A DNA stretch of 58,064 nucleotides from an uncultured Spirochaetales bacterium. GTDB taxonomy: Bacteria > Spirochaetota > Spirochaetia > Sphaerochaetales > Sphaerochaetaceae. The notes beneath the pieces are model-generated. The model made no database searches and was not told where the DNA came from. It was given only the letters and a program-made list of their open reading frames with translations. The DNA lies in NCBI GenBank assembly GCA_949297785.1, contig CASFTW010000013.1, positions 1 to 58,064 of the forward strand. The letters are read 5' to 3'. The translations under genes were made by a program, and so were the position numbers. This document shows positions 14,300 to 18,412 of this stretch, piece by piece. Every line of letters starts with the position of its first letter. Within the stretch, counting starts at the first letter, position 1.

Positions 14300-14824
14300 T
14301 CAGACTTTCAGCGTGAATTGTGCGCCGCATGAGAAAATGTCTTTCTCCTTTATCATTTCAAAGAGGGCATTCAGAACGGCTGTCTCCCCTTCGCCGAAAG
14401 GCCGCAGCACATAGGCAGCCGGAGAATCATGGACGGGCCGTCCGATTCCTATTCTCAGGCGGAAGAAATCCTCTCCTCCGATTCTCTCCTTTATGTTCTT
14501 CAGCCCGTTGTGTCCTTTTGTGCCGCCTCCCTGCTGGAACTTTGCGCATCCGGAGGGAAGCTCCATGTCATCGTGCACTACCAGAATCTCATCGTTTTTC
14601 AGTTTGAAAAAGCTTTTCACCTCATATGCCGCCGTGCCGGAAAGATTCATCAGCGTAAGCGGTTTGAGTACGGACAGCGGACCTTCTTTTGTGTATGCCG
14701 AGTGGAATTTGACTGACCAGAGGGATGCCGGGAACAGATAATCGGCAAGAAGGTATCCCGCATTGTGGCGGGTTCTTGCATATTCTTTGCCCGGATTGCC
14801 GAGAAACAGAGCTGCTTTTATCAT
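14300..14824 (-). CDS. pth: Peptidyl-tRNA hydrolase
   Basis: A 174-residue Pth family enzyme that recycles peptidyl-tRNA released from stalled ribosomes. Motifs: FLGNPGKEYARTRHNAGY with the catalytic His, LKPLTLMNLSG, VVHDDMELPSG with the catalytic Asp, and GGGTKGHNGL. The length is slightly short of the typical ~190, missing part of the C-terminal tail. No obvious RBS before ATG 14824. It diverges from the small membrane protein gene across ~70 bases. Confidence 0.96.
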   Translation of the reverse strand: MIKAALFLGNPGKEYARTRHNAGYLLADYLFPASLWSVKFHSAYTKEGPLSVLKPLTLMNLSGTAAYEVKSFFKLKNDEILVVHDDMELPSGCAKFQQGGGTKGHNGLKNIKERIGGEDFFRLRIGIGRPVHDSPAAYVLRPFGEGETAVLNALFEMIKEKDIFSCGAQFTLKV

Positions 14825-14893
14825 GGCTGCAAGTGTATGACAATCTTTCCTCTTGTGCTAGAATGGAGGTATCTTGAATATGGAGGTGTGTGT

Positions 14894-15316
14894 ATGGCAA
14901 CGAAATCTTCAATTGCCAAAGAGTCCGTGAAATTCACAGGAGATCTCATCCTCAGAATTCTCGTCGGTCTGCTTTTCATCTGCATCGGAGTTCAGGGTTT
15001 CATGGGGGAGACCTCGAATGAGCTTTTCAGGTCTCTGGACAATGAAGTCCTTGAAATCATTCTGGGAATCATTCTGGTTCTGTGCGGTCTCCTGCTCATT
15101 GTTCCTCTCTTTCTGAAGGGCATCAACAAGGTGTATGTGAAATGGAGCATGATCGCAGTTCTTGCAGTCTGGGTGATAATGATCATCATCAATGACTTCG
15201 TTTACGGGCTCAGGGGAGTCAACGGAGTGGAGTGGTTCGAATGGCTGGAGAACTTCATCTACCATCTGATGATTCTGGCATGTGTCTATAAAGTCTCAGG
15301 CTCGGCTCTGAAATAA
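14894..15316 (+). CDS. Small four-helix membrane protein, unknown function
   Basis: A 140-residue protein starting at ATG 14894, 7 bases after GGAGG (14882-14886); an in-frame ATG at 14765 lies inside pth and has no RBS. About four hydrophobic helices (starting RILVGLLFICIGVQGFMG) are arranged as in small DoxX-like or DUF-type membrane proteins; I cannot name the family. Monocistronic, with its own terminator. Confidence 0.75.
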   Translation: MATKSSIAKESVKFTGDLILRILVGLLFICIGVQGFMGETSNELFRSLDNEVLEIILGIILVLCGLLLIVPLFLKGINKVYVKWSMIAVLAVWVIMIIINDFVYGLRGVNGVEWFEWLENFIYHLMILACVYKVSGSALK

Positions 15317-15338
15317 GGCAGTCTGTTTCTTCAGCACG

Positions 15339-15372
15339 AAGCCTCCGGGATCCTCGGGGGCTTTCATTTTTT
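15339..15372 (+). terminator. Rho-independent terminator before the IscB element
   Basis: AAGCC-CCG pairs with CGG-GGCTT around a short GATC-type loop, followed by TCATTTTTT. It separates the membrane-protein transcript from the IscB leader that follows. Confidence 0.75.
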
Positions 15373-15399
15373 CCCATGCGGGATTAAGCTCAGACTGTC

Positions 15400-15668
15400 A
15401 CTCACTCCTACCCTAGGGTAGGAGCTTGTAAGAGCTCAGGGTGACCAGCCATCAAGATGCCGGTGACGCAAAAGAGACACTCCGGGGTGCATCACCAGCT
15501 CCGGACGCTTTCGTAAGGGAAGCCATAGCTGTCAGGCATGGCAGCAGACAACCGTGAGGGCAAGGACGAAACGGGCCATGCCATGTGCGTCCCGGCATCG
15601 GGCGAGGTGAGATGGGAGAAATCCCACGTTACACGGGCCGTAAGGCCATCTTTTCAAGGAGAAATGCC
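15400..15668 (+). ncRNA. Putative IscB omega RNA (HEARO-type)
   Basis: A 270-base non-coding leader ends at the iscB RBS, exactly where HEARO/omega RNAs lie. Visible helices: perfect palindrome with halves CTCCTACCCT and AGGGTAGGAG (15405-15424); GGTGACGCA/TGCATCACC (15462-15470 with 15488-15496, one mismatch); GGCATGGC/GCCATGCC (15535-15542 with 15575-15582); TGGGA-GAAA-TCCCA (15613-15626) and GGCC-GTAA-GGCC (15636-15647), both with GNRA loops. The guide would be the flanking bases just 5' of the scaffold, roughly 15375-15400. Ends are not determinable by eye. Confidence 0.72.
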
Positions 15669-16664
15669 GTGAAGGTGTTCGTATTGGACAGACACAAGAA
15701 GCCGCTGATGCCCTGCTCACCTAAAAGAGCGAGGAAGCTGATGGAATCGGGACGGGCCAGAGTACACAGACGTTATCCCTTCACCATCCGTCTTGTTGAC
15801 AGGACCTTGGAGGGAAGCACGGTACAGAAAACGGAACTCAGAATCGATCCAGGCTCCAAAACCACAGGCTTCGCCATCGTCAGGAAGGATGAGGAAGGAG
15901 AAGACCATGTGCTCCACCTCAGCCAGTTTGAACACAGGGGACAGCAGATTCGCCTCAGTCTAGAGAAGCGCTCATCCATCAGGAGATGCAGGCGGAGCAG
16001 GAAGACATGGTACAGGGCTCCCCGTTTCGACAACAGGATACGCCCTGATGGCTGGCTTCCTCCTTCTCTCCAGCATCGTGTGCTGACGACACGGACATGG
16101 GTCAAGTGCTACATGTCACTGTTGCCAGTGTCCTCGATTGCCTTCGAGTACACGAACTTCGACATGCAACTGATGCAGAATCCTGGGATTGAGGGAGTGG
16201 AATACCAGCATGGCTCTCTCCATGGCTACGAGGTGAGGCAGTACCTCTACGAGAAGTTCGGGCACAGATGCGTCTACTGCGGCAATGAGCCGGATGCAAT
16301 CGAACTGGATCATGTAGTGCCGCGCTCAAAAGGTGGAAGCGACAGGGTTTCCAACCTCGTTCCATCCTGCCATAAGTGCAACCAGAGGAAGGGAAACAGG
16401 AGCATTGAGGACTTCCTTGCCGGTGACAGAGAGAAGTTGCATGAAATCCAGAAACAGCTCAAGGCACCGCTGAGGGATGCGACTGCGATGAACATCGTCC
16501 GTCCAGCGATTCTCCGCTTCCTTAATGATACAGGTATTCCCGTCACCTGCTGGTCTGGTGCAAGGACAAAGTGGAACCGGGACAGGCTCTCCATCCCCAA
16601 GGACCACCATCTGGATGCTGCCTGTGTAGGGGCTGTAAAGGCACTCCATGATTGGGAAGACTAG
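15669..16664 (+). CDS. iscB: IscB RNA-guided nuclease, cut short by in-frame amber
   Basis: Start GTG 15669 has AAGGAG 7 bases upstream; an ATG at 15585 would translate the RNA leader. Residues 1-50 are the PLMP domain (KKPLMPCSP, then RARVHRRYPFTIRL). RuvC-I is LRIDPGSKTTGFA (Asp60), followed by an Arg-rich bridge helix (~104-125), RuvC-II IAFEYTNFDMQL (Glu160), HNH with CVYC, LDHVVPRSKGG (His215) and CHKCNQRKGN, and RuvC-III PKDHHLDAACVG (His313, Asp316). All catalytic residues are intact. TAG at 16662-16664 ends the frame at residue 331, just before the C-terminal TAM-interacting domain, which continues in the same frame. IscB is the ancestor-like relative of Cas9. Confidence 0.9.
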   Translation: MKVFVLDRHKKPLMPCSPKRARKLMESGRARVHRRYPFTIRLVDRTLEGSTVQKTELRIDPGSKTTGFAIVRKDEEGEDHVLHLSQFEHRGQQIRLSLEKRSSIRRCRRSRKTWYRAPRFDNRIRPDGWLPPSLQHRVLTTRTWVKCYMSLLPVSSIAFEYTNFDMQLMQNPGIEGVEYQHGSLHGYEVRQYLYEKFGHRCVYCGNEPDAIELDHVVPRSKGGSDRVSNLVPSCHKCNQRKGNRSIEDFLAGDREKLHEIQKQLKAPLRDATAMNIVRPAILRFLNDTGIPVTCWSGARTKWNRDRLSIPKDHHLDAACVGAVKALHDWED

Positions 16665-17024
16665 GCAATCCTGATGATTAAGGCTGCAGGGCATGGCTCA
16701 AGAAAGAGGAGGCATGTGGACAGGTACGGCTTCCCGTTCGGCAAACCCTTCATGAGGGAGAAGCTGGTCCATGGGTTCCAGACCGGCGACATCGTCAAGG
16801 CTGTTGTGCCAGATGGGAAGAAGGCTGGAATCCACATCGGTAAGGTGTCTGTGAGAAACACTGGACGCTTTAACATCAAGACTTCGGCTGGAACAGTCGA
16901 AGGCATAGGCTGGAGGAACTGCACCATTCTGCAGAGGAAGGATGGGTATTCATATCAGATTGCAAAGCAGGTGTTCATTCATCCCACAGGCAAGTCTGGT
17001 GGGTTTCCTGCGGAGGTATTATGA
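16665..17024 (+). pseudogene. IscB C-terminal TAM-interacting domain, after the amber codon
   Basis: Same frame as iscB, 119 codons: AILMIKAAGHGSRKRRHVD, YGFPFGK, LVHGFQTGDIVKAVVPDGKK, AGIHIGKVSVR, FNIKTSAGTVEGIGWRNC and LLQR-like ILQRKDGYSY, the usual end of IscB proteins. A single base change (for example AAG to TAG) explains the break. A weak restart at ATG 16674 is possible; no good RBS is seen there. The stop TGA 17022-17024 overlaps the ATG of the MATE gene, and the last ~20 codons (QVFIHPTGKSGGFPAEVL) look like read-out into flanking DNA rather than IscB. Confidence 0.85.
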
Positions 17025-18412
17025 CAGATGAAGAAATAAGAAGACAGAATCATTACAGGAAGATGACAGAGTCTCCCGTTCATGGACTGATCATAAAACT
17101 TGCCGTTCCCACCATCATCTCAATGCTGGTCTCGTCTATATATAATATGGCGGACACCTATTTCGTCTCAAAGCTCGGCACCAGTGCGGCCGGAGCCGTA
17201 GGTGTCGTTTTCTCGGTCATGGCGATCATTCAGGCCGTGGGATTCACGATCGGCATGGGCGGCGGTGTCATAATGTCGCGCCAGCTGGGAGCGAAGGAGA
17301 CGGAAAAGGCAATGAGCAGTGCCAGTACGGCGTTTTTCTTTGCTCTGGCACTTGGTATTCTGCTTGCTGTTTCCGGTGTTCTTTTCAACAAGCCTCTCAT
17401 GAAACTGCTCGGTGCGACCGAGACCATTCTTCCTTATGCCCAGTCCTATGCCGCATACATATTTCTCGGGGCACCTTTCATGTGCACTTCCTTTGTGATG
17501 AACAATCTTCTGAGAAGCGAGGGAAAGGCCGCCTTCGCCATGGTGGGCATAACTGCAGGAGGGTTGCTGAACATAGCTCTGGATCCGCTTTTCATCTTCA
17601 CTTTCGGCCTCGGCACTGCAGGTGCGGCCATCGCCACATCGCTCAGCCAGGCGATAAGCTTTATTATCCTTCTTGCCTTTTTCATGATGGGAAAGAGCAA
17701 TGTAAGAATAAACATAAGAAGGGTATCGCTGAAAGGAAGGCTTTATCTCGATATTGTGAAGATGGGACTTCCCAGTCTTTCAAGACAGGGTCTTGCATCC
17801 CTTGCCACTGTTGCTCTTAATGTAAGTGCAGCTGCCTTTGGTGATGCAGCGGTTGCGGCAATGTCGATCACCTCACGTATAACATTCTTCATCTTTTCCG
17901 CACTTCTCGGTTTCGGACAGGGCTTCCAGCCGGTGTGCAGCTTCAACTGGGGTGCGCGCAAGTACGTCAGGGTATACGATGCCGTACGTTTCACTGCAGC
18001 TGTCGGAACAATCCTGATGATCATAATCCCGGGAATATGTTTCATTTTCTCATCCTTCCTCCTGCAGTGTTTCATTTCCGATGATGCGCAGGTCATTGAA
18101 ATGGGCTCTCTGGCACTCAGGGCACAGTGCTTCGCACTTGCATTCCAGGGTATATGCGTGACGACCAATATGGCACTGCAGAGCACAAGCCATTACGGCA
18201 AGGCCACGTTTCTTGCGCTGTGCCGTCAGGGCATATTCTTCATACCTGTCGTTCTCATACTTCCCCGTATCATCGGTCTTAACGGCGTCCTGTTCGCACA
18301 GAGCATCAGCGATATACTGACATTTTTTGTCAGCATATTCTTCTTCATCTCATTCCTGAAGGAAGTGAAGGACAGAGCCTCTGGCGTTCATTATGATAAT
18401 CCACTACACTGA
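17021..18412 (+). CDS. MATE-family efflux transporter
   Basis: A 463-residue, 12-helix multidrug and toxic compound extrusion protein. It begins with a short charged tail, then SPVHGLIIKLAVPTIISM and YNMADTYFVSKLG, a typical first MATE repeat; the second half repeats the plan (MGLPSLSRQGLASLATVALN). It exports cationic or other small molecules with sodium or proton coupling; the substrate is unknown. GGAGG lies 6 bases before ATG 17021, inside the last codons of the IscB frame. Unlike the second MATE protein in this window it has no extra cytoplasmic domain. Confidence 0.93.
   Translation: MTDEEIRRQNHYRKMTESPVHGLIIKLAVPTIISMLVSSIYNMADTYFVSKLGTSAAGAVGVVFSVMAIIQAVGFTIGMGGGVIMSRQLGAKETEKAMSSASTAFFFALALGILLAVSGVLFNKPLMKLLGATETILPYAQSYAAYIFLGAPFMCTSFVMNNLLRSEGKAAFAMVGITAGGLLNIALDPLFIFTFGLGTAGAAIATSLSQAISFIILLAFFMMGKSNVRINIRRVSLKGRLYLDIVKMGLPSLSRQGLASLATVALNVSAAAFGDAAVAAMSITSRITFFIFSALLGFGQGFQPVCSFNWGARKYVRVYDAVRFTAAVGTILMIIIPGICFIFSSFLLQCFISDDAQVIEMGSLALRAQCFALAFQGICVTTNMALQSTSHYGKATFLALCRQGIFFIPVVLILPRIIGLNGVLFAQSISDILTFFVSIFFFISFLKEVKDRASGVHYDNPLH

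What the first reader, a model, noticed from the sequence alone, without database searches (positions are those of the whole stretch)
15669..17024. IscB split by a single amber codon between RuvC-III and the TAM-interacting domain
All RuvC and HNH catalytic residues are intact and the C-terminal domain continues in the same frame after TAG 16662-16664. Either a fresh inactivating mutation, or amber read-through, or a functional two-piece nuclease in which the C-domain restarts at ATG 16674. Loss of the C-domain should abolish target recognition, so the distinction matters.
Basis: partly seen in the sequence, partly recalled or inferred. Interest (0 to 1): 0.7.

Follow-up and report, generated by a model that had tools for sequence, protein, structure and literature searches.

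The report
Recently amber-truncated IscB mobile element
A small mobile RNA-guided DNA-cutting gene in a gut spirochaete relative carries a single recent stop mutation that removes its target-recognition end; this is an ordinary broken gene, not a new two-piece or re-coded enzyme.

Summary
The in-frame TAG at 16662-16664 is real. The 119 codons after it stay open and align without gaps to the intact relative L061 (78% identity on both sides of the stop); L061 has CAG there, so one C-to-T change explains it. The gene belongs to a precisely bounded IscB/HEARO element (15397-17020). Sibling genomes hold the matching empty site, and the element ends at ATGA, the start codon of the MATE gene.

I rate a recent nonsense mutation as most likely. 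No CUA-anticodon tRNA was found among 44 tRNAs, release factor 1 is present, and four other long ORFs in the window end in TAG. Of 63 other complete homologues 55 are intact and 8 are broken elsewhere. The C part kept purifying selection (omega about 0.15-0.18; omega = 1 disfavoured). The 'restart' ATG is an ordinary internal methionine codon in the relatives.

The fold model puts it inside RuvC, before the last strand, so the product lacks that strand, the wedge/P1 domain and the TAM domain. A functional truncated, two-piece or read-through enzyme is not excluded but unlikely. A metagenome-consensus error cannot be checked without reads. Low interest.

The parts
15397..17020 (+). IscB/HEARO mobile element, ends defined by the empty site (one-base ambiguity: T15396/T17020)
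   Evidence: Window flanks 14700-15396 and 17020-17300 are contiguous in L136 (G001) at 90% and 92% identity and in L137 (G010); the same ends appear in the L061 and L062 elements
15381..15396 (+). Left flank, predicted source of the 5' guide of the omega RNA; in the empty allele it is followed directly by ATGA
   Evidence: GGATTAAGCTCAGACT is identical in empty site L136, followed there by ATGACAGATGA; guide position from known IscB biology, inferred here
15397..15581 (+). omega RNA (HEARO, RF02033)
   Evidence: cmscan 45.6 bits, E 1.1e-7, below the gathering score of 83; relatives L061 and L062 score 45.8 and 48.7, so it is no weaker than theirs
15656..15661 (+). Shine-Dalgarno AAGGAG before GTG 15669
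   Evidence: sequence
15669..16661 (+). iscB 5' part: PLMP, RuvC-I, bridge helix, RuvC-II, HNH, most of RuvC-III (331 aa)
   Evidence: Pfam RRXRR and HNH, NCBIfam guided_IscB; PDB IscB chains
16662..16664 (+). Amber codon TAG; CAG in intact L061, GAA in L062
16665..17021 (+). iscB 3' part: last RuvC strand, wedge/P1 domain, TAM domain (119 codons), frame open
   Evidence: gap-free match to L061; read-through model aligns to IscB chains through their C-termini
16674..16676 (+). ATG proposed as restart; internal Met codon, also ATG in L061 and L062
17021..18412 (+). MATE-type transporter gene; its ATG overlaps the iscB stop (ATGA) and is the insertion point
   Evidence: orthologues without an insertion at this start codon, L136 and L137; the name MATE is from inspection of the translation

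Best explanation
A HEARO/IscB element inserted just before the start codon (ATGA) of a MATE transporter gene in this genus. A single C-to-T change then turned a glutamine codon (CAG, as in L061) into TAG at residue 332 of IscB. Shown: single stop, open frame after it, near-intact sequence on both sides, precise empty site in sibling genomes, no suppressor tRNA found. Inferred: translation ends at the TAG, giving a 331-residue protein with all catalytic residues but without the last RuvC strand, the wedge/P1 domain and the TAM domain, so it should not recognise double-stranded targets. An intact enzyme from this locus would be guided by the left flank to the empty site (flank + ATGA), helping the element stay in place; that step is now lost. 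The element is a recent pseudogene, with no transposase of the Y1 kind found in this assembly.
For: Single stop, frame otherwise open. Codon is CAG in L061, one transition away. Identity 78.2% before and after the stop, no gaps. Codon model: window-branch omega in the C part about 0.15-0.18, omega = 1 lower by 4.9 log units, so selection acted on this part for most of the branch. 55 of 64 complete homologues intact, none other stopped at this junction. 44 tRNAs in the assembly, none with CUA; RF1 above cut-off; TAG ends four other long ORFs in the window. Empty sites L136, L137 for this insertion and L160 for the L062 insertion. No Y1 transposase in G000, found in 14 of 16 genus members. TAM-domain residue change G461P abolishes OgeuIscB cleavage (PMC9640706).
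Against: The parsimony count on the window branch is 9 nonsynonymous to 45 synonymous before the stop but 9 to 9 after it (Fisher p 0.0098), which could mean some relaxation and so an older stop; the likelihood test does not support a difference from the other branches (p 0.75), and synonymous sites are saturated. Only two close relatives exist, one of them frameshifted. No reads, no expression data.
Confidence: 0.8

Rival explanations
1. Consensus error or strain mixture in the metagenome assembly: the real codon is CAG and the gene is intact.
For: Source is a draft assembly in 50 contigs, completeness 95.28, contamination 2.31; everything else in the gene looks intact.
Against: No other lesion in the ORF; neighbouring MATE gene is uninterrupted; isolated base errors in a consensus are rare (general knowledge).
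Confidence: 0.08
2. Amber read-through gives some full-length IscB.
For: Frame stays open and conserved for 119 codons.
Against: No CUA-anticodon tRNA among 44 found, RF1 present, four other long ORFs in the window end in TAG; intact relative has CAG. Basal leakage cannot be excluded.
Confidence: 0.05
3. Two-piece nuclease: the C part restarts at ATG 16674 and joins the N part.
For: ATG lies 9 bases after the stop, a distance at which restart can happen.
Against: That ATG is an internal Met codon in L061 and L062; the split falls before the last RuvC strand; no homologue is split here; only a weak ribosome-binding site.
Confidence: 0.03
4. The 331-residue protein is a functional enzyme or regulator on its own, acting on single-stranded targets.
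For: Engineered IscB without its TAM domain binds and targets ssRNA/ssDNA (PMC12991159); window-branch count shows fewer amino acid changes per codon in the N part than in the C part.
Against: R-IscB keeps the P1 domain, lost here; last RuvC strand also lost by the model; no relative has this form.
Confidence: 0.04

Closest known systems
IscB / HEARO elements (RNA-guided endonuclease IscB, NF040563; HEARO RNA RF02033)
   Same: PLMP, RuvC, bridge helix, HNH, C-terminal wedge and TAM domains; omega RNA just upstream; left flank as guide source
   Different: One nonsense codon cuts the protein at residue 332; HEARO score below the gathering threshold, as in its relatives
Candidatus Aphodenecus pullistercoris IscB (L061) and uncultured Spirochaetales IscB (L062)
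   Same: Nearest orthologues, 79% and 75% identical over the N part, same element ends
   Different: L061 is intact; L062 has a one-base deletion in the C part; both sit at other loci
R-IscB (engineered OgeuIscB without TAM domain, PMC12991159)
   Same: No TAM domain, catalytic residues present
   Different: R-IscB keeps the P1 domain and the RuvC end; this protein should lose both

Membership tests
IscB (RNA-guided endonuclease) | Match to curated IscB model above cut-off | tested here: met
   NF040563 420.5 bits vs cut-off 175
IscB (RNA-guided endonuclease) | RuvC and HNH catalytic residues | tested here: met
   Conserved columns D60, E160, H215, N229, N238, H313, D316
IscB (RNA-guided endonuclease) | C-terminal wedge and TAM domains in the same translated protein | tested here: not met
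   Encoded in frame but after TAG 16662-16664; as read by the standard code they are not made. The gene is an IscB by descent; the product is not a complete IscB
IscB (RNA-guided endonuclease) | RNA-guided cleavage activity | not testable with these tools
   needs expression
HEARO / omega RNA element | Covariance model match upstream of the ORF | tested here: inconclusive
   45.6 bits, E 1.1e-7, below gathering 83; relatives alike
HEARO / omega RNA element | Precise insertion next to a short target (ATGA) with empty sites elsewhere | tested here: met
   L136, L137, L160
Amber-recoded gene | Suppressor tRNA with CUA anticodon | tested here: not met
   44 tRNAs, none CUA; draft assembly of 95% completeness
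Natural two-piece nuclease | Split conserved among relatives | tested here: not met
   55 intact, 8 others broken elsewhere

The most novel reading that the evidence does not exclude
The truncated protein is a natural counterpart of engineered R-IscB: a guide-dependent enzyme or binder for single-stranded DNA or RNA, kept after losing double-strand recognition.
Probability: 0.03. Interest if true: 0.7.

Novelty: new member of a known kind. Interest (0 to 1): 0.13.

Why it matters
As it stands, little: one more IscB element that has recently lost its nuclease by a point mutation. The locus is mildly useful because empty and filled sites in sibling genomes fix the element's ends, its guide source and its ATGA target exactly. 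If the truncated protein proved active it would be a natural example of single-strand targeting by IscB.

Tried and rejected
Weinberg et al. 2009 (HEARO) is not in the library; the ATGA/GTGA target rule is from memory. Two paper searches for HEARO with ATGA gave nothing of use. Viral collection: only distant relatives and no match to the conserved right end. Plasmids and phages: no relative above 60% identity. C part alone finds no Pfam, NCBIfam or meaningful PDB sequence match. Other iscB copies in the same genome: none; other omega RNA copies: none. An alternative upstream start at GTG 15585 was set aside: GTG 15669 has the ribosome-binding site and aligns with ATG in L061. Considered that the nonsynonymous excess after the stop shows an old stop: the likelihood test does not support it.

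Full report
Observation. Frame 15669-17024 encodes an IscB with one internal stop, TAG 16662-16664. The 5' part passes the curated IscB model and matches Pfam RRXRR and HNH. The read-through part of 119 residues is not in those models but aligns gap-free with the intact IscB L061 at 78.2% identity, exactly the value of the 5' part. All catalytic positions are kept.

Position of the stop. An AlphaFold2 model of the read-through protein (mean pLDDT 78.8, pTM 0.64) shows a strand at 334-339, just after the stop at residue 332. IscB and IsrB structures align to model residues up to 430-434 and mostly to their own C-termini; several Cas9 RuvC domains align up to model residues 340-344, for example SpCas9 to 1099-1101. 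By general knowledge SpCas9 RuvC ends near there. So the stop lies inside RuvC, and the protein as translated lacks the last RuvC strand, the wedge/P1 domain and the TAM domain. The model is of moderate confidence and the strand assignment is inference.

The element. The left end GTCAC at 15397 and the right end before ATGA are shared by the three related elements. Genome G001 carries the same flanks joined with nothing between them (L136: GGATTAAGCTCAGACT-ATGACAGATGA), G010 likewise. The reverse holds too: the element of G001 (L062) lies before a nucleoside phosphorylase gene whose start is free in G000 (L160). The element therefore occupies 15397-17020. The iscB stop TGA comes from the target ATGA, whose ATG is the start of the downstream gene. 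The HEARO RNA is recognised at 45.6 bits, below the gathering score, but the relatives score 45.8 and 48.7. The omega RNA region differs from the relatives at 15 and 26 of 272 positions, so it shows no special decay.

Age of the lesion. The codon is CAG in L061, GAA in L062. On a three-taxon codon model the C part has omega 0.14 overall and about 0.15-0.18 on the window branch; omega = 1 there is 4.9 log units worse. A parsimony count gives 9:45 before and 9:9 after the stop (Fisher p 0.0098), but the likelihood test finds no difference from the other branches (p 0.75). Synonymous sites are saturated and the sample is small. I read this as a recent stop, without excluding modest relaxation. 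Host genes of G000 and G001 are 95-98% identical while their IscBs are 75% identical and sit at different loci, so these elements were acquired separately, and the insertion here postdates the split of the two hosts or was lost in G001.

Alternatives. Read-through: 43 Rfam tRNAs plus one more serine tRNA in the window, none with CUA; RF1 present; TAG terminates four other long ORFs in the window. Two-piece: the restart ATG is an internal Met codon in both relatives, the cut falls inside RuvC, and among 64 complete homologues 55 are intact and the other eight broken ones are broken elsewhere. Single-strand enzyme: IscB without its TAM domain does target ssRNA and ssDNA, but that engineered form keeps the P1 domain (PMC12991159). 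Assembly error cannot be excluded without reads.

Verdict. Ordinary: a recent nonsense mutation in a recognisable IscB element.

Noticed in passing
17010-17023; L061 2933, L062 4352, L063, L065, L066, L070, L106, L114: In this IscB subgroup the natural stop TGA overlaps an ATGA whose ATG starts a downstream ORF of 125-463 aa in nine loci. In the three genus elements the right end carries GCGGAG just before it, so the element may supply a ribosome-binding site and translational coupling to the host gene.
   Followed up: partly
L062 about 4060: The nearest relative in G001 has a one-base deletion in the same C part, so two of the three genus elements are broken there.
   Followed up: partly
window element 15397-17020 vs L062: IscBs are 75% identical while host MATE and phosphorylase proteins of the two genomes are 95-98% identical: separate acquisitions.
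   Followed up: partly
G000 whole assembly: No Y1 transposase domain found, though 14 of 16 genus genomes have one.
   Followed up: no
15397-15581: This omega RNA lineage scores far below the Rfam HEARO gathering threshold in all three copies, so Rfam scans at default miss it.
   Followed up: no
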